Positions 5,225 through 28,877 of a DNA stretch of 38,004 nucleotides are shown in pieces; positions within the stretch are counted from its first letter, which is position 1, and each line of letters begins with the position of its first letter. The stretch is from a virus. A program made the position numbers and the translations under genes. Location of the stretch: the IMG/VR virus record IMGVR_UViG_3300037246_000467, positions 1-38,004 of that record; one strand, given 5' to 3'. The notes beneath the pieces are model-generated. The model did no database searches, was not told where the DNA came from, and saw only the letters and a list, made by a program, of their open reading frames with translations.

Positions 5225-7032
5225 TGCTGCCGAAGCCTATAACGCTTGACTTTGAAACGGAAGCCATTGTCGGAAACCCGTTAGTCAAGCCCCCGATGCC
5301 CTGTGGTCTCGCTTCCATAGGCATCATAGATGAGGACAGCCCGGTCTACACGACGGGCTGGGACTCTATGAGGCATATGTGGTATCAAGCCATAGCTTCT
5401 GACCGCCCTCTTATATTCCACCACGCACAATTTGATATAGCTGTAGGAACTCATTGGTTCAAAACTGAACGGCCACATTGGGAGCGAGTACATGACACAA
5501 TGTTCTTACTGTTCTTGGATGATCCCTATAGCAATACTCTTAGTCTTAAGCCTGCTGCCGATAGGTATTTGGATATGCCGCCGGAAGAACAGGATAGGCT
5601 TACTGAGTGGATCCTTGCTAATGTCCCAGAGGCGACAAAAAAGACAGCAGGAGCTTATATCTCACGTGCTCCTAGCACTCTTGTCGCCCCATACGCACAA
5701 GGTGACGTACTTCGTACCATCGGACTGTTCAATCTTCTCTATACTCCAGAAATTAAGGAGCCTTATGATAGGGAGCGTAGGCTCGCCCCCATCATGGCGG
5801 AAAGTAGCCGAAATGGAATACGTGTTGATGTGGAACAACTCACAATTGACGTTGAAATTTGTACATTTGGACTTGCACAAGCAGAACAACGGATTTATAA
5901 AAGGCTTGGATGCGCCGAATTTAACATCGGATCAGGAACTGTTCTTGCGGACAGACTTGATACAGCAGGAGTTATGCGAGAATGGAAGTACACCCCAACA
6001 GGAAGACGAAGCACCGCCAAAGACAACCTAATCCAAGGGATCGATCCAGCATACAGCGACCTGTTAGACCTGCTGGCCTATCGGTCTACTATGAGTACAT
6101 GCATCGGTACTTTTATGACTCCGTGGCTCGCTTTTGCCAAAGCCGATGGGCGTGTTCACACAGAATGGAATCAGGTAAAGAATAATGAAAAAGGAATTGC
6201 AGGTGCTAGAACTGGCAGACTGTCTAGCGCACGACCCAATTTCCAAAATCCTCCTAATCCGTTTGATTGGATCATACCAGACGGTTTGCCTCCGCTGCCG
6301 TCTATGCGGAGCTATCTACTTCCTGAGGAGTTCCACATATGGATCAAGAGGGATTTTAGTTCTCAGGAAATACGCATTCTTGCACACTTTGAAGATGGAC
6401 CTCTTATGGTTGCGTACTGTAATGAACCATTCTTGGATCCCCATACGATGGCGCAAGAGCTTATTCGGCAGATCACTGGTGTCTTATACGCGAGACCCGA
6501 TGTAAAGATCACAGGCTTTAGTATTATCTACGGGGCAGGTGTACCGGGGCTTGCTCAACAACTAAAACGACCGCCTGCTGTGGCCTTCGAGCTTAGGAAC
6601 GCCTACTTTAAGGCTATGCCAGCGGCAGCACAACTCGCTGCGTCCACACGCAGTCGAGGGCGATCTGGGGGTACAATCCGCACATGGGGCGGGCGGCACT
6701 ACCCGGTGGAGCCAGCGAAGCTAATCAAAGGTAAGATACGTAGCTTTGAGTATAAACTCCTTAACTATTTAATTCAGGGCAGCGCAGGGGACCAGACTAA
6801 ACAGGTTATCTGTGACTGGCATGATATAAAAGGCTCGGATACTATGTTCCTGGCCACCATACATGACGAGATTAACGCTTCCGTACCCACCGAAATATGG
6901 GAGGAAGAAATGGCACACCTTCGCTATGCTATGGACAAAGATTTGTTTGACGTGCCTATGCGTAGTGAAGGGTTCCACGGACCTAATTGGGGTTCGCTTA
7001 CTAAAATGACAAGGAAAGAAGACTATGGCTGA
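5224..7032 (+). CDS. Family A DNA polymerase with 3'-5' exonuclease
   Basis: A 602-residue replicative polymerase of the Pol I type without the 5'-nuclease domain. Exonuclease motifs: LDFETE (D9/E11), HHAQFD (D71), YAQGD (Y157/D161). Polymerase motifs: TGRLSSARPNFQN (331-342), motif A RDFSSQEIR (D377), motif B K428-F432-Y436 (KITGFSIIYGAG), NYLIQGSAGD (514-523), motif C HDE (547-549). All catalytic acids are present. The residue matching E. coli Phe762 is Phe, a state associated in published phage surveys with virulent phages. GTG start at 5224, overlapping the previous TAG by one base. Confidence 0.97.
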   Translation: MLPKPITLDFETEAIVGNPLVKPPMPCGLASIGIIDEDSPVYTTGWDSMRHMWYQAIASDRPLIFHHAQFDIAVGTHWFKTERPHWERVHDTMFLLFLDDPYSNTLSLKPAADRYLDMPPEEQDRLTEWILANVPEATKKTAGAYISRAPSTLVAPYAQGDVLRTIGLFNLLYTPEIKEPYDRERRLAPIMAESSRNGIRVDVEQLTIDVEICTFGLAQAEQRIYKRLGCAEFNIGSGTVLADRLDTAGVMREWKYTPTGRRSTAKDNLIQGIDPAYSDLLDLLAYRSTMSTCIGTFMTPWLAFAKADGRVHTEWNQVKNNEKGIAGARTGRLSSARPNFQNPPNPFDWIIPDGLPPLPSMRSYLLPEEFHIWIKRDFSSQEIRILAHFEDGPLMVAYCNEPFLDPHTMAQELIRQITGVLYARPDVKITGFSIIYGAGVPGLAQQLKRPPAVAFELRNAYFKAMPAAAQLAASTRSRGRSGGTIRTWGGRHYPVEPAKLIKGKIRSFEYKLLNYLIQGSAGDQTKQVICDWHDIKGSDTMFLATIHDEINASVPTEIWEEEMAHLRYAMDKDLFDVPMRSEGFHGPNWGSLTKMTRKEDYG

Positions 7033-13919: not shown

Positions 13920-14270
13920 CTACGGCAGGGACACAGAAAAACCTGTAGGTGCTTCCGGTTTGGATGGATCTACAGTAAAATTTACGGAGTTACTTGCGTC
14001 CGATTCCTCCCCATTTATCGCTACTGTCGTAGCGTGACAATTATAGGCTCCTGCGGGCAGGGGAGGGGACGTCCACGTGTCCGTACCTCCTGTGTTCGGT
14101 ACGTTACCGAGCAGCACCGCATTACAGAAGATGTTGTAGCTGGCGATGTCTGCATCGGGCAGCGGAGTACCATCGGTATTCTGAATCGGCGGTGTCCAGT
14201 CAAATGTTTTCGGCTGGACCGCAAACACCAGTGGTGAACATATCAACAGACAATAAAATAATTTTCTCAT
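13920..14270 (-). CDS. Secreted fibronectin type III domain protein
   Basis: A 116-residue protein with an N-terminal signal peptide (MRKLFYCLLICSPLVFAVQ) and one FN3-like domain (FDWTPPIQNTDGTPL, IASYNIFCN, WTSPPLPAGAYNCHATTV, DASNSVNFTV). Starting at 14270 gives AGAGGA 6 bases upstream and ATGA coupling to the DUF5675 gene. No lysozyme motif. In a lysis group it could act in the periplasm or outer envelope, perhaps binding glycans, or stand in for an outer spanin; the signal lacks a convincing lipobox. Confidence 0.75.
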   Translation of the reverse strand: MRKLFYCLLICSPLVFAVQPKTFDWTPPIQNTDGTPLPDADIASYNIFCNAVLLGNVPNTGGTDTWTSPPLPAGAYNCHATTVAINGEESDASNSVNFTVDPSKPEAPTGFSVSLP

Positions 14271-14731
14271 GCTACGTCCTCTATTGTTATCCACACTGTG
14301 TCTTTCATTATTGCTGCATGGATCATTTCATACAAACGCCTGTAAGCAAGAACACTACTTGTGACTTGCCCCCGTTCAACTATGTTGGATATCTGGCCGT
14401 CGCCAACGAGAATACAACCTTCTGAATCATCGTCTTTGTTGCCAACGTGAATGTATATAAATGTGAAACCCGGTACGTCTTGGAGCCAGAGCATTCCGCC
14501 ATGCCACGGTTGAAATCTTTCTGTATACCTCTTGTGCATACCTCCCTCGGTACGCAGCTTGATTTCATACCTTCCCGCTGGTATTCTAGTTTCACCTGGA
14601 ACCTTTGGTTCATTGTACTGGTCCTCTAGGGTATAGCAACGAAAGCTAAGGTCATCAGTCCCTATTACTTCAAACAGGTTGCCGAGGGTAGCTTCATCCC
14701 CACTGGAAATCCTAGTGAGTTTCAGCTCCAT
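14267..14731 (-). CDS. DUF5675 protein, candidate endolysin
   Basis: A 154-residue DUF5675 member: TLGNLF, YTLED, KVPGETRIPAGRYEI, GMLWLQDVPGF and IHVGNKDDDSEGCILVG. The His…Ser-x-Gly-Cys layout resembles L,D-transpeptidase-type active sites, and the gene sits next to holins, so a peptidoglycan-acting endolysin is a reasonable inference; no other endolysin is visible in the window. The ATG at 14731 has AGGAGG 5 bases upstream; GTG 14737 and ATG 14734 are too close to that site. Confidence 0.8.
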   Translation of the reverse strand: MELKLTRISSGDEATLGNLFEVIGTDDLSFRCYTLEDQYNEPKVPGETRIPAGRYEIKLRTEGGMHKRYTERFQPWHGGMLWLQDVPGFTFIYIHVGNKDDDSEGCILVGDGQISNIVERGQVTSSVLAYRRLYEMIHAAIMKDTVWITIEDVA

Positions 14732-14969
14732 CATCACCTCCTAAACCTCCCGGTGGCTTTTCGTCAAAGAGGGGGACCCCTTCTCCCACTGGCTTTTGAA
14801 GCTCAGCTGTATCAATAATCTTAAGTTGACCATTGGCTATAGCTGCGAGCCATAGCTTCATCTCGGATATCTGTTCAGATTTAGCTGAAGATACAGGTAC
14901 TCCTTCGCTAAAGATTTGGTAAATACCGAGGGCTATTTTTTGATGTCCATCTGGCTGTTGGTCGGGCAC
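14712..14969 (-). CDS. Hypothetical protein, 85 aa
   Basis: GTG start at 14969 with AAGGAG 6 bases upstream. Acidic, with a Gly/Pro-rich C-terminus (KPPGGLGGDDGAETH); the middle (SAKSEQISEMKLWLAAIANG) is helical. The end overlaps the DUF5675 start by 20 bases. No family recognised. In the lysis group by position. Confidence 0.6.
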   Translation of the reverse strand: MPDQQPDGHQKIALGIYQIFSEGVPVSSAKSEQISEMKLWLAAIANGQLKIIDTAELQKPVGEGVPLFDEKPPGGLGGDDGAETH

Positions 14970-15007: not shown

Positions 15008-15361
15008 CTAGGTAGTGTCCTGCAATGCTGACTTAGCTTCTTCTAATGCTGCCAGTTGGATTTCTAGATCAGCTAGGTACAGGGCATCCTCTTCTGTCCA
15101 TACTTCATCATCATCTCTTTGTCGGAACCTCAATGCAGCCATCTCTTTTCGGGTTGCATTGATATCCCGTTGTAACAGAGCAACGAAAGCACCACTGATA
15201 GGGGCAGTCTGCTCTGCTACTATCTCCTTGATATCCTCAGCCAATGCGGAAATAATAAGTGGCTGTATGACAAACCAGAAGATAGGTATGAGGGTAAGGT
15301 AGGTCACCAACTGGTTCACCCCTATGCGGATTCCTGTTTCCTTAGCTGTTGCATTTGTCAT
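15008..15361 (-). CDS. Inner-spanin-like membrane coiled-coil protein
   Basis: A 117-residue protein with one membrane segment near the N-terminus (LVTYLTLIPIFWFVIQPLIISAL) and a long charged helix after it (INATRKEMAALRFRQRDDDE, DLEIQLAALEEAKSALQ): the shape of an Rz-like inner spanin anchored in the inner membrane with a periplasmic coiled-coil. No sequence match to a named spanin is claimed. The ATG at 15361 overlaps the previous stop as ATGA. Confidence 0.6.
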   Translation of the reverse strand: MTNATAKETGIRIGVNQLVTYLTLIPIFWFVIQPLIISALAEDIKEIVAEQTAPISGAFVALLQRDINATRKEMAALRFRQRDDDEVWTEEDALYLADLEIQLAALEEAKSALQDTT

Positions 15362-15831
15362 ACTGGTGTCCATTCAATAATAATATCGTAGGAATTACCA
15401 TTGATCATATCTAATGATGGGATGGTGGTGAAAGCCCACTGAGTAGTGCCGCCACTGATAGCCTGATAAGCATTCACCTCGCTACGCAAAGTGACCCTAG
15501 TGAATGTACCCTGTTCAAATGTGCCAGTAATTGAAATATTCACAAAAGACTGATCAATATTCGGAATATTCTGCGGCTTGAGTCTGAATGTCAGGTTGGT
15601 GTTGACAGTTTCTAACATCGAAATGTCATAGTTGTTGCCATTTGGCTCGTAGTCCACGTTAGGCGACAACGAACCTTGTGCGGGACCTACGGTTCCGTCA
15701 CTAAATCCTGTGTGTTCGTTAGGAGCAGGACCATTCTCTCCTGCGACCAAAGTATATTCTTCAGTCACTATAGGCGGAGGAGGCTCTGCTGCCGCAGAAG
15801 CTGCCGAAGCACCATGCTGGAACCCGCTCAT
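15358..15831 (-). CDS. Probable small tail/fibre-associated protein
   Basis: A 157-residue beta-rich protein with an Ala/Pro-rich N-terminal linker (AASAAAEPPPPIV) and strand-like Thr/Asn repeats, ending IIIEWTPV. It directly follows the tail fibre gene with ATGA overlap, so a fibre chaperone or distal fibre part is likely. No signal peptide. Confidence 0.6.
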   Translation of the reverse strand: MSGFQHGASAASAAAEPPPPIVTEEYTLVAGENGPAPNEHTGFSDGTVGPAQGSLSPNVDYEPNGNNYDISMLETVNTNLTFRLKPQNIPNIDQSFVNISITGTFEQGTFTRVTLRSEVNAYQAISGGTTQWAFTTIPSLDMINGNSYDIIIEWTPV

Positions 15832-24705: not shown

Positions 24706-25302
24706 TTACTTCCCCTTCTTAGGCTTCTCCAGCTTAGTGACCTTAGCCATAAGATCTTCTACAGCTTGCTGGAGGGCGGCAATTTCATTATCTTTAACGT
24801 CAATGGCCGCATTGAGCTGCACCAGAGGAGCCGCTTCCCGTGACGCCTGTATAAAGGCTTGAGCATCTCGCTTGAGGTTGCCCAGACCCATGAATTTCTG
24901 CACATGGACGTCGGCAAGATCTGCCAGTTGCTCCACAGTGTAGATGCCAAAGAACTTCATCTCTTCCACTTGGGAGCGAGTGACCATCGGCCACGCCTTC
25001 AGCGGCGTACCCTCATGTATCTCACCCTCGCCCTGTTCAAATGCAGCGAACTGCTTGGCGAAGCGTTGCTTGTCCATGTCACGGGCTGGGCGGATAATAA
25101 CGCTATCCTTGTCACCAGGAACCATGATGCGGACATAAGCCTCATCCTTGAATTGGGGGCGGCCTTCCTTCAGCGTTGCCACTTCGTCCTTACGAGGGTG
25201 GTTAAAGAATACAACGAACAACTTGTCGTCGCCTGCGAACCGAGCGTTATTGCCCTCACCAAGCATCGCCTGTTCGGTTATTGCGTAATCAGCTTCTATC
25301 AC
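24706..25302 (-). CDS. Conserved phage structural-module protein, 198 aa
   Basis: GTG start at 25302 with GGAGAAGGAA upstream. The N-terminal half looks like a compact fold (DDKLFVVFFNHPRKDEVATL, MDKQRFAKQFAAFEQG), followed by GTPLKAWPMVTRSQVEEM, a segment seen in podovirus proteins next to coat and connector genes, and a C-terminal coiled-coil. I recall this type only as a conserved protein of unknown role. It ends directly before the connector ATG. Confidence 0.65.
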   Translation of the reverse strand: MIEADYAITEQAMLGEGNNARFAGDDKLFVVFFNHPRKDEVATLKEGRPQFKDEAYVRIMVPGDKDSVIIRPARDMDKQRFAKQFAAFEQGEGEIHEGTPLKAWPMVTRSQVEEMKFFGIYTVEQLADLADVHVQKFMGLGNLKRDAQAFIQASREAAPLVQLNAAIDVKDNEIAALQQAVEDLMAKVTKLEKPKKGK

Positions 25303-25315
25303 TTCCTTCTCCTTA

Positions 25316-25618
25316 TTATGGGATCAACCAATGTATCTGGGCTTGGAATTCTGTACCATGCCCCTTCGTCATCAAATGACTGCATCCAATTTCATAAGAA
25401 ATGACGGCAGCATTATTATTGAGCCTGCGTAGATATTCATCAAACAGATGCTTACATTGCATCTTGCTCAGTCCATCTTCATTAAACAGAACAAATCTCT
25501 TCTGTCCTCCAGGCACTTCTGGTGTCTGTATAGCTTCGTACACCATACTCCAATGATCATCATACGCCGTACACGCAGATAGGATAAAAACAATGGCTAG
25601 AAGTATACAGGTCTTCAT
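25316..25618 (-). CDS. Predicted lipoprotein, 100 aa
   Basis: A clear type II signal: MKTCILLAIVFILSACTAYDD with lipobox LSAC (lipidated Cys16). The mature part is about 85 residues with two other cysteines (MQCKHLF, IGCSHL) that could form a disulfide. Asp at +4/+5 after the Cys does not clearly force inner-membrane retention. It sits inside the virion operon with one-base overlap to the large fibre. Candidates: superinfection-exclusion lipoprotein (like T5 Llp) or outer spanin placed far from the lysis group. Confidence 0.7.
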   Translation of the reverse strand: MKTCILLAIVFILSACTAYDDHWSMVYEAIQTPEVPGGQKRFVLFNEDGLSKMQCKHLFDEYLRRLNNNAAVISYEIGCSHLMTKGHGTEFQAQIHWLIP

Positions 25619-28419
25619 TAGAGCAACCTTGTTACTTGGAGCGAAACATTTTCCGCAGTAAAAACTTCGAGTCCACCAGTATCCGGTATTTGATTTAATT
25701 GTAATGTGACAAAATCATTAGCAGTCAAGTTAGCAATAAATCCATTACTTAAATGGGAGAAAAATCGGTTATCATTACCAGTGCCTACCGAAGTATCCCG
25801 AAATGCGCTTGTACTTGCTAGTGAACCATTTATGCCAGTTCCTGCATCATTCAATCGCACTCTTGCTTCCACAAGTATTAAATCGGAACCAGATACGAGA
25901 GCGTTATCAATATCTAATTCGTATTCAATCTTGTATGTGCCAGTCTCCATGACCTCAATATCATCTGTAGAAAGATCAACATGCTCAATTACGGCTGCAT
26001 CCGTTTCAATATCTGTTGCGTCCAATGTCACATCACCAAAGGATGCAAGTATTGTGAAAGATGTTGTACGTCTTGCCTGTACTGCATCATTTGCAACACT
26101 AGGAGCACTGAGATCCGATTCAGTTAGTACTCGTTCCAGGCCACCGCCGGTATCTTGGTTATTAGCTTGAAGTCCACCAGCCGAAGCTGCTACAGTACGA
26201 GTGGATTCCTCTCCATCACTAATCTGAGACATTGAACCAACAGCATTAGAACCAAGACCTGTATCAGCATCATTCTGTCTTACGTTTATAACTGGATTAA
26301 CGGCAGAAGGAGCCTCAAGAAGCATTCTTGGCCCTGTTGCTGCTTCTACACCAATACTTCCATCAACAGTAAATGCTGAACTGTTAAGGAACGCTTTACG
26401 GCTACCAGCGATACTCACATTTAGCTGGGCGACACCGCCTGTCCAAAATCCTGTGCCAAGAGCACCGATGGCTAAGGATGGAGTTGCTGCTGCGCCATCA
26501 CGGGGGAGGAAGAATTGGTCTGTCGCAGATGTACCAGCTTCAATCGCCCTTGCAATTTCAACTCCACCAGCAATTAGGCTGAGTTGATCTGGGTCATCCC
26601 GTCCTATGCCAGTGTTGGAGTCATCGTTTCTAGGCGTCAGGGACGGAGTAGTGGGGCCACCACCTACGTTCCGCATAGATGGCCTGTCTGTTCCTATACC
26701 GGAAATACCGCCTAGCGTAAATTCCCAAGTCGGTTGCGCCACTCCACCAAGTGCCAACGATACTGCGTCAGTTGTGCTGCGATAAAACCCAACGTCCTGT
26801 TGTCCGGTTGCGCTGAAACTATAACTCGGAGCTGCTGCGCTACCATCTGGCGCTAAGATTGGGCCTTTTGTATCAATAGTGATTACGGCTGCGGCTTCGG
26901 TTACACGAAGACCTTCAACACCACCTGCGATCAACGAAACCTGATCAGCGGCATTAGCCCCGATACCTGAATCTTGATCATCACTCCTTGGAACTAGTGT
27001 CGGATTAGTAGCAGATGCTGATTCATTCTGTAGGGAAGCACCAAGACCCGTATCTGATCTGAAAGTATCACCATTGAACTGCCATTTAGCTAAACCCCCC
27101 ACAGAGACTCTTAATAGATTGTCAGTACTCTCAAAGAAACCTGTGTCCCCATTACCAAATGCTAAGGCTGGGAAAGCCGGATTATTTTCAACAAATCCAG
27201 GCGAGACAATGAATTGTTCCGCACCAACAACTTCTTGGCATCGTGCAATCTCTTTAGCACCAGCGATCAAGGAAAGCTGATCTGCGTCACTTTGGCCAAC
27301 GCCCGTATCAAGATCTGTCTTATCCGGTACGAGTGTGGGTACAGTTCCACTTGCGCCGGTATTGATTATTGCGGGGCCAGTGCCGAATCCTGCGGTGGAT
27401 TCTAGATTACCAGAAAATACACAGGTGATTACACTTCCTACTTCGGCCACCTTAAAGCCTTGGATACCGCCAGCAAATAACGACAAAGCATCATCGGTGT
27501 CCCACCCAATGCCCGTATCCAAGTCTGTCTTATTCGGTGCAAATAAGACACCTGTTCCGGCTGCTATATCTACGATTGCGGGGCCAGTAGCGGTAACTCC
27601 CTGTAACACCCCTGAAATTATGTCAAAGTTTGGGTCACCTTCAATCGTGCCATCACCAGTCCATACACCGATCTGGTTATTAGCTGGAGTGCCTACCTTA
27701 AAGACATCACCCCCACCACTTGCTGCTCCACCAATTTGTAGAATAACAAATAAGTCTTCTCCATCAGCAGGAAGCCCACCACTGGCTTCAATTGTACCTT
27801 CAATAGTGAACCACCCCGTATTATCCGTGATGGGCGCAGTTACATTGAGTACCAAAAATTCAGATGAATCTTTATCAGTCTGTACATATATTCTGTCATC
27901 CGTAGTAATGAGTGACAAGAGATTAGAAACATCTATACCATTTTCATCAAAATCATCAATATAGATTTCGGTAACGCTGGCGGGAGTGGCACTATTAAAT
28001 CGGAGTAATCCAAGGCCAGGATCAGCAGCGATAATAGAATCACTAAATTTGTAGGGAGCACTGAGCATCCCGCCTGACCTATTTTGATCCTTAAAGGATA
28101 AAACCCCTGCTCCATCAGTAGACAGGACTTGATCGGCTGCGCCATCTGCTGCGGGAAAGGAATAATTGGGGAGGAGTAGCTGCGACCCATCAAACTTAAA
28201 GCCTGGAAAACCTTTAATAGTCCCATCACCAGTCCACACACCAATTTGATCAACAGCCGGAGTACCTACCTTGAATACATCCGCTGCACCAACAACAGCG
28301 AAAGCCTTAATCTGATCAAGCGTGGTTCTAAAGTCAGCCCCAGCTTTATCTGTTGCAAAATTATCAGTCCCTGCTGGAGCTGGATTAAGAGTTGCTGCTG
28401 AAATTTTAAGATCGGCCAT
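25618..28419 (-). CDS. Large repeat-containing tail fibre/appendage
   Basis: 933 residues from the ATG at 28419 (AGAGGC upstream; the frame from 28464 overlaps the previous gene). The N-terminus (LKISAATLNPAPAGTDNFATDKAGADFRTTLDQI) is fibre-like. Two copies of VFKVGTPAxxQIGVWTGDGTI follow, then five ~30-residue repeats around DTGIG…DQLSLIAGGVE…R, alternating with GFF/GFY/GFW…VSVGG units, and the linker GLERVLTESDL. The C-terminal 140 residues (GTYKIEYELDIDNAL…FVTLQLNQIPDTG…ENVSLQVTRL) look like a C1q/TNF-type jelly roll. Likely receptor binding. Confidence 0.8.
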   Translation of the reverse strand: MADLKISAATLNPAPAGTDNFATDKAGADFRTTLDQIKAFAVVGAADVFKVGTPAVDQIGVWTGDGTIKGFPGFKFDGSQLLLPNYSFPAADGAADQVLSTDGAGVLSFKDQNRSGGMLSAPYKFSDSIIAADPGLGLLRFNSATPASVTEIYIDDFDENGIDVSNLLSLITTDDRIYVQTDKDSSEFLVLNVTAPITDNTGWFTIEGTIEASGGLPADGEDLFVILQIGGAASGGGDVFKVGTPANNQIGVWTGDGTIEGDPNFDIISGVLQGVTATGPAIVDIAAGTGVLFAPNKTDLDTGIGWDTDDALSLFAGGIQGFKVAEVGSVITCVFSGNLESTAGFGTGPAIINTGASGTVPTLVPDKTDLDTGVGQSDADQLSLIAGAKEIARCQEVVGAEQFIVSPGFVENNPAFPALAFGNGDTGFFESTDNLLRVSVGGLAKWQFNGDTFRSDTGLGASLQNESASATNPTLVPRSDDQDSGIGANAADQVSLIAGGVEGLRVTEAAAVITIDTKGPILAPDGSAAAPSYSFSATGQQDVGFYRSTTDAVSLALGGVAQPTWEFTLGGISGIGTDRPSMRNVGGGPTTPSLTPRNDDSNTGIGRDDPDQLSLIAGGVEIARAIEAGTSATDQFFLPRDGAAATPSLAIGALGTGFWTGGVAQLNVSIAGSRKAFLNSSAFTVDGSIGVEAATGPRMLLEAPSAVNPVINVRQNDADTGLGSNAVGSMSQISDGEESTRTVAASAGGLQANNQDTGGGLERVLTESDLSAPSVANDAVQARRTTSFTILASFGDVTLDATDIETDAAVIEHVDLSTDDIEVMETGTYKIEYELDIDNALVSGSDLILVEARVRLNDAGTGINGSLASTSAFRDTSVGTGNDNRFFSHLSNGFIANLTANDFVTLQLNQIPDTGGLEVFTAENVSLQVTRLL
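26190..27534 (-). repeat. Five-copy ~30-codon repeat in the large fibre gene
   Basis: Five protein repeats of the form (N/D)xxD(T/S)GxGxxxxDQLSLIAGGVExxR, near 27531-27444, 27321-27231, 26988-26895, 26628-26538 and 26277-26190 (minus strand). The DNA is similar but not identical, so the copies are old or selected at protein level. They alternate with a second unit of GF(F/Y/W) type. Confidence 0.75.
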
Positions 28420-28421
28420 AA

Positions 28422-28877
28422 TTATGCCTCTGTTCGCCAAACGCCGCCGCTCTCGGTTCCCCAAGCATCGGTAGACCCTTCTAACTGCCAGTTGTTCACC
28501 CCAGGACCACCCGGGAGGTCTGAAACCCCTATACCTCCTGCACCATTAACAGTGATCCCATGAACAAAATGTATTTGATTTCCTCCAACGGCACTTTGAC
28601 GTCCATCGCTATCCGTAACAGAAAAACCTTCTGGGTACGGTAGAAAAGGACCTACTTGGTCAAAATACCTGACTCCCTGATTGGTATGTCTTATGCCGTT
28701 AATGAGCACATCAGTAGCACCTTGATTCGCATCCACCGTGGTGTACATACGACCATCGATATCATGCAAAGTGCCATTGATCCGAACATCAGTTGCTAAA
28801 GGTCCATAGCCAGCAGAAACAAGAGTGTTCTGAAGCTCGCCTTCATTGCTTAGTAAACTTCCGTTACTAAAGAACAT
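28422..28877 (-). CDS. Hypothetical virion protein, 151 aa
   Basis: Beta-rich, Gly/Asn/Thr/Asp-rich throughout (ATDVLINGIRHTNQGVRYFDQV). The N-terminus contains repeated DVxINGxxH (DVRINGTLHDIDG, DVLINGIRHTNQG). No signal or membrane segment. Between decoration and large fibre genes, so probably a head-decoration or fibre-base protein. The hairpin at 28885-28904 overlaps its ribosome-binding region. Confidence 0.6.
   Translation of the reverse strand: MFFSNGSLLSNEGELQNTLVSAGYGPLATDVRINGTLHDIDGRMYTTVDANQGATDVLINGIRHTNQGVRYFDQVGPFLPYPEGFSVTDSDGRQSAVGGNQIHFVHGITVNGAGGIGVSDLPGGPGVNNWQLEGSTDAWGTESGGVWRTEA

What the first reader, a model, noticed from the sequence alone, without database searches (positions are those of the whole stretch)
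25316..25618. Lipoprotein gene inside the virion operon
A 100-aa protein with a clean lipobox (LSAC) lies between the fibre and the 198-aa head-module gene. It is not in the lysis group, where an outer spanin would be expected. It could block the receptor of this phage (superinfection exclusion) right next to the receptor-binding fibre gene.
Basis: inference. Interest (0 to 1): 0.5.

Follow-up and report, generated by a model that had tools for sequence, protein, structure and literature searches.

The report
Optional envelope protein behind phage fibre
A virus of bacteria carries, right behind its probable host-recognition fibre gene, an optional small protein that is probably tethered in the bacterial envelope; it may keep other viruses out, but that function is inferred, not shown.

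Summary
In detail: 25316-25618, on the minus strand, is a real 100-aa lipoprotein gene (lipobox LSA|C, Cys16) that starts one base inside the fibre stop codon. It belongs to a small family without a Pfam or NCBIfam model, found on 18 IMG/VR contigs (59-100% identity) and in none of the phage and plasmid records searched.

The family is a conserved domain of about 81-91 residues with two invariant cysteines on exchangeable anchors. Four lipobox sequences (two of them 98% alike) all lie just behind a fibre, in two virion backgrounds. Eight other sequences have one N-terminal hydrophobic helix instead, and by inspection none lies next to a fibre. The gene is optional: a collinear 32-kb sister contig (with a different fibre tip) lacks it, as does a 7-kb fragment with a 92% identical tip.

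Outer spanin: unlikely (TM-anchored relatives; the sister has the same lysis-like genes without it). Virion part: unlikely, untested. Best reading: an accessory periplasmic envelope protein, probably an exclusion factor in the style of Llp or SieA. The mechanism is inferred.

The parts
25316..25618 (-). lipoprotein gene, 100 aa; optional gene behind the fibre
   Evidence: ORF; related contigs; alignment; purifying selection
25571..25618 (-). signal peptide and lipobox up to Cys16 (MKTCILLAIVFILSAC); next residue Thr, not Asp
   Evidence: anchor DNA of the lipobox members 64-77% identical (near-copy pair 96%), 0 of 100 shuffles as good in each pair
25319..25561 (-). predicted periplasmic domain, residues 20-100, with invariant Cys55 and Cys79
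   Evidence: 70-98% identity to 11 relatives; AlphaFold models of low confidence, mean pLDDT 64
25616..25620 (-). TAATG: fibre stop overlaps lipoprotein start (translational coupling inferred)
   Evidence: same in L021; in L023 and L024 the overlap is with a 124-127 aa ORF that lies between fibre and lipoprotein
25618..28464 (-). fibre-like gene, 948 aa from the first TTG (true start not settled)
   Evidence: weak BclA_C match at residues 828-947, below Pfam's cut-off; comparisons
24706..25302 (-). 198-aa gene of the Mx8/BUCT555-type virion module, downstream border of the insertion
   Evidence: 13-base gap with TAAGGAG kept with or without the lipoprotein gene

Best explanation
An optional phage gene that places a small, probably disulfide-bonded domain in the periplasm of an infected Gram-negative cell, held there by a lipid anchor (by the E. 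coli sorting rule, recalled, on the outer membrane). It is made with the virion proteins, coupled to the fibre. Most likely it is an exclusion factor: from the periplasmic side it acts on a conserved envelope target or on the incoming DNA conduit, and so keeps further phages, or the phage's own progeny, from entering the infected cell or being lost on it and its debris. Related phages mount the same domain on a transmembrane anchor. Shown: gene, family, exchange of anchors, optional presence, place. Inferred: periplasmic location, late expression, exclusion, target.
For: Four sequences keep a lipobox, eight others have one N-terminal hydrophobic helix: tethering outside the cytoplasm is what is conserved. 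Two invariant Cys, and a further pair (CDDDGNC) present or absent as a pair, suit an oxidising compartment. Purifying selection. Optional presence on Mx8-type backbones: window, L020, L021, L022, L024, L025 have it, L163, L166, L168 lack it. Same place behind a fibre in a second virion background, L023. Position as T5 llp (PMC9586334, passages). Membrane proteins that block the DNA conduit of a short-tailed phage are known (P22 SieA, PMC10883804, passages).
Against: No sequence match to a known exclusion or defence protein; the match to the Cor PHROG covers residues 1-19 only, E 0.064. Lipoprotein identity does not follow the fibre tip. TM-anchored relatives lie away from fibres, 6 of 9 loci coupled to a protein with a Tat-like signal, which no exclusion model explains. 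Expression with the virion genes (inferred) is late for keeping out a second phage. No reliable structure and no phenotype.
Confidence: 0.38

Rival explanations
1. Another envelope effector: it binds a host periplasmic protein (protease, stress sensor, muramidase) or tunes lysis timing like a periplasmic antiholin, and has nothing to do with exclusion.
For: TM-anchored relatives sit among small exported proteins (Fn3-like, Tat-like) or after a primase-like gene, not at fibres; the domain is well conserved between phages with different virion genes.
Against: All lipobox-type loci found are at a fibre, in two virion backgrounds, and the gene is not with the lysis-like genes of the window.
Confidence: 0.3
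2. One reading: the protein blocks the receptor of this phage's own fibre.
For: Position directly behind the fibre in all lipobox-type loci found, and fibre end plus lipoprotein occur together in two virion backgrounds; precedents T5 Llp and Rtp45 on LptDE (PMC12685063, passages).
Against: Lipoprotein and fibre-tip identities are discordant; L160 has a 92% identical tip without the gene at that place (7-kb fragment); TM-anchored relatives away from fibres.
Confidence: 0.2
3. An outer spanin placed outside the lysis group.
For: It is the only credible lipobox ORF in the window; the 121-aa gene at 15008-15373 has a hydrophobic helix and a long tail and could be an inner spanin (inspection only); two of ten members match an Rz-like spanin PHROG in the signal region, best E 0.12.
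Against: TM-anchored relatives could not sit in the outer membrane; the sister contig of L166 has homologs of the five lysis-like genes, lacks this gene, and the lipobox scan there gave only three ORFs antisense to late genes.
Confidence: 0.05
4. A virion part or a fibre-assembly factor.
For: It lies in the virion operon and overlaps the fibre stop.
Against: Signal or TM anchor in all 12 aligned members; absent from the L166 contig, whose capsid protein is 97% identical to the window's.
Confidence: 0.05

Closest known systems
T5 Llp, lytic conversion lipoprotein
   Same: Small lipoprotein gene directly downstream of the receptor-binding gene; periplasmic; a disulfide is reported, here two invariant Cys (PMC9586334, passages).
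   Different: No Llp entry among the matches of a PDB profile search at E up to 10 (whether that copy holds the Llp chain was not checked); mature part 85 residues here, 61 in Llp; TM-anchored relatives here.
Cor family (T1, phi80; PHROG 1119) and Rtp45 of phage Rtp
   Same: Small phage lipoproteins; Rtp45 and probably Cor change an outer-membrane receptor from the periplasmic side (PMC9586334, PMC12685063, passages).
   Different: PHROG 1119 matches signal residues 1-19 only, E 0.064; Rtp45 is about 6 kDa; no domain likeness found.
P22 SieA and HK97 gp15
   Same: Membrane-anchored phage proteins that block DNA entry (PMC10883804, passages); like the TM-anchored relatives in place.
   Different: SieA has about 162 aa and three predicted TM segments; no sequence comparison was run; gp15 seen only as mentioned in that paper.
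PHROG 1096, unknown function
   Same: Weak match of residues 46-83: E 0.0019 in the window; 8 of 10 members at E up to 1, best 0.0014; E 7.8e-5 in a six-frame search of the L027 record.
   Different: Too weak to call homology: 1 of 6 records matched, two records with a family member did not, and none of three annotated phages.

Membership tests
Bacterial lipoprotein | Signal peptide with lipobox and Cys | tested here: met
   Cys16 in LSAC, kept in L021, L023, L024; lipidation not testable here
Cor exclusion lipoproteins | Sequence similarity beyond the signal peptide | tested here: not met
   PHROG 1119 matches residues 1-19 only, E 0.064; 2 of 10 members at E up to 1
T5 Llp and Rtp45 | Sequence similarity | tested here: inconclusive
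   neither is among the 8 PDB matches at E up to 10, but their presence in that copy was not checked and no direct comparison was run
Llp/Cor/Rtp45-type exclusion lipoproteins | Gene next to the receptor-binding gene | tested here: met
   that the 948-aa protein is the receptor-binding protein is inferred
Llp/Cor/Rtp45-type exclusion lipoproteins | Blocks infection when expressed | not testable with these tools
   needs an experiment
Outer spanin (Rz1 type) | Outer-membrane lipoprotein paired with an inner spanin in the lysis cassette | tested here: not met
   outside the lysis-like group; TM-anchored relatives; sister contig with the five lysis-like genes lacks it
Virion protein | Present in particles and conserved with the virion module | tested here: inconclusive
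   optional on backbones with the same capsid genes; particles not testable

The most novel reading that the evidence does not exclude
Phages with unrelated virion genes share an unnamed periplasmic domain that they re-mount on different membrane anchors: lipid at the fibre locus, a single TM helix elsewhere, there often coupled to a phage-encoded protein with a Tat-like signal. It would be an exclusion module that hits one conserved envelope target from either membrane, and so works across virion types rather than against the carrier's own receptor alone.
Probability: 0.25. Interest if true: 0.6.

Novelty: new variant of a known kind. Interest (0 to 1): 0.42.

Why it matters
If it is an exclusion factor, it extends the fibre-adjacent lipoprotein strategy of coliphages (Llp, Cor, Rtp45) to Mx8/BUCT555-type phages, with a different domain. 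The natural exchange of lipid and TM anchors would separate where such a protein is held from what it binds, and phages with and without the gene on one backbone give a ready comparison. If it is not an exclusion factor, it still marks the place behind the fibre as a site for optional envelope genes.

Tried and rejected
Outer spanin and virion part: see rivals. Likeness to the eukaryotic 'enhancer of rudimentary' protein (PDB E 0.024; Pfam ER in 1 of 10 members, E 0.11): 24-28 residues only, taken as chance. Structure: two AlphaFold runs, mean pLDDT 63.9 and 64.2; Foldseek gave nothing at E <= 0.001 in PDB (first model) or BFVD (second model); no fold is claimed. Distant homologs: none in phages (window query, E up to 0.1, L030 query, E up to 10), none in plasmids (L030 query), none confirmed among 47 pattern matches in genome contigs (two short peptide patterns, so relatives can be missed), none in 369 and 385 sampled genomes of two classes (no genome known to match was among them). 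PHROG 1096: too weak. One or several origins of the lipobox form: not resolved, 2 of 9 inner branches well supported. BASEL paper PMC8594841 (passages): 'superinfection' once, 'lipoprotein' and 'Llp' never; no use.

Only L160 (92%) has a near-identical tip; L163, L166 and L168 have tips of 57, 46 and 52%.

Full report
What is there. The ORF at 25316-25618 runs on the minus strand, has an ATG start and encodes 100 residues with a lipobox ending at Cys16. The phage is of the Mx8/BUCT555 type: its major capsid protein is 71% identical to that of Stenotrophomonas phage BUCT555 and 61% to that of Myxococcus phage Mx8. The gene's start overlaps the fibre stop (TAATG), and a 13-base gap with TAAGGAG separates its end from the 198-aa gene. 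A lipobox by itself is not rare: shuffled windows hold 3.75 on average, but 0.25 in ORFs of 100 aa or more. Conservation is the real evidence.

The family. Scans of IMG/VR found a relative on 15 contigs and on 18; a profile search finds the gene once in each of these 18 records. There was no match in 50,697 phage records or 72,556 plasmid records, and none in 369 and 385 sampled genomes of two bacterial classes. Pfam has no model above its cut-off for any of 10 members; NCBIfam and PADLOC, tried with the window's protein and that of L029, gave nothing. PHROG 1096, of unknown function, matches weakly. Twelve sequences were aligned. Residues 20-100 of the window form a conserved domain with two invariant cysteines, 70-98% identical to 11 relatives. 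Apart from the near-copy pair window/L021, pS is 0.51 or more in every pair compared (some estimates exceed 1, a sign of how crude the method is there) and domain pN is 0.04-0.22: purifying selection.

The anchor is exchangeable. Window, L021, L023 and L024 have a lipobox. L026, L027, L028, L029, L030, L031, L034 and L035 have instead one N-terminal hydrophobic helix without a lipobox. Anchor and domain DNA have different histories: L034/L035 are 92% identical in the anchor and 72% in the domain; L027/L028 85 and 74; L023/L024 64 and 84; window/L023 77 and 69; window/L024 65 and 79. The window's domain is no closer to the lipobox types L023 and L024 (73 and 74%) than to the TM forms (70-80%). 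The domain tree does not settle whether the lipobox form arose once.

Place. All lipobox-type loci found lie directly behind a fibre gene: window, L020, L021 and L022 with nothing between; L023, L024 and L025 with a 124-127 aa ORF between. L023's 32-kb contig has no Mx8-type capsid match and a different tail gene downstream (PHROG 376), yet its last 300 fibre residues are 80% identical to the window's. So fibre end and lipoprotein gene occur together in two virion backgrounds, which is in favour of some link with the fibre locus. The nine TM-type loci (L026, L027, L028, L029, L030, L031, L033, L034, L035) are, by inspection of neighbouring ORFs, not next to a fibre: L029 follows a primase-like gene and L026 a similar one; the others lie among small ORFs, several with signal sequences, and in L027 ahead of a terminase gene (similar-looking genes in L028, L031, L034 and L035 were not searched). 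Of L033 only about 630 bases upstream are held. In 6 of these 9 a protein with a Tat-like RRxF signal starts in the gene's stop region; in L028 one starts about 580 bases on; L031 was flagged too (RRIV), but I read that one as an ordinary signal peptide; in none of 4 lipobox loci examined. The same rule flags two ORF starts in the window, neither credible.

Optional. Of 23 loci with a related fibre tip, 6 have the lipoprotein gene behind it and 15 the ORF of 124-162 aa (3 have both); L161 and L178 end too soon to tell. L160 has a tip 92% identical to the window's, and nearly the same DNA up to the fibre stop is followed by another gene; its contig is 7 kb. L163, L166 and L168 (tips 57, 46 and 52%) have the Mx8-type 198-aa gene behind fibre and ORF without the lipoprotein gene. 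The contig of L166 (32 kb) matches the window gene by gene, with few exceptions, from the window's right end to about position 7000, the five lysis-like genes included. It lacks the family (0 of 30 records; 18 of 18 in the positive control), and a lipobox scan, less exhaustive than that, gave only three ORFs antisense to late genes. In 89 Mx8-type loci with both border genes, a simple lipobox rule flags an ORF in this slot in 4 (window, L041, L053, L054), all members of this family. In BUCT555 the slot holds a putative holin and an endolysin among others; in Mx8 one structural gene.

Lipoprotein identity: window/L021 98, window/L023 71, window/L024 72, L021/L023 71, L021/L024 72, L023/L024 84%. 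Fibre tip, last 140 residues, same order: 92, 77, 41, 82, 45 and 49%. The lipoprotein of L023 goes with L024, its tip with the window. Four types are a small sample, but the expected coupling is not seen.

What it does. The conserved trait is tethering of the domain outside the cytoplasm, whichever the anchor. With optional presence, this fits an accessory envelope factor. Exclusion is the most economical function, because fibre-adjacent small lipoproteins with that function are known (Llp: PMC9586334, passages; Rtp45 on LptDE: PMC12685063, passages), and so are membrane proteins that block the DNA conduit of a short-tailed phage (SieA: PMC10883804, passages). The step from envelope factor to exclusion is inference. 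Thr after the lipobox Cys suggests the outer membrane by the E. coli sorting rule (recalled). Late expression is inferred from the overlap and the direction of the operon; it would suit protection of progeny from loss on debris better than exclusion early in infection.

Verdict. Observation confirmed; interpretation partly supported. The gene is an unannotated accessory family that may work like the known exclusion lipoproteins; membership in the Cor family is not supported by sequence, and that in Llp or Rtp45 was not shown.

Noticed in passing
L027:5033-5365, L029:7270-7608, L030:7273-7593, L034:7246-7494, L035:1376-1672: Small phage proteins with a Tat-like signal (RRxFI plus hydrophobic stretch) whose start overlaps the stop of the TM-anchored relatives; several share a stretch like RMAxALARSMMQTKExV. 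Pfam and NCBIfam TAT models match two of them weakly, below cut-off.
   Followed up: partly
window 13920-14294: Exported protein with a signal peptide beside the lysis-like genes; relatives, one with an fn3 match, lie near TM-anchored members of the lipoprotein family.
   Followed up: partly
L024:6612-6995 and 14 other fibre-tip loci: An ORF of 124-162 aa follows the fibre in 15 of 23 fibre-tip loci but has no credible match in the window; no PHROG or Pfam match.
   Followed up: partly
L017:10076-11396 (BUCT555): The slot that holds fibre and lipoprotein in the window holds a lysis cassette (putative holin, endolysin) in BUCT555.
   Followed up: no
L164:5266-5812 and L169:5266-5812: Behind other fibres with a related tip: a short TM protein followed by a lipobox ORF, looking like a spanin pair.
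   Followed up: no
window 14267-14737: DUF5675 protein (Pfam E 2e-27, weak Tlde1 match) in the position of an endolysin.
   Followed up: no
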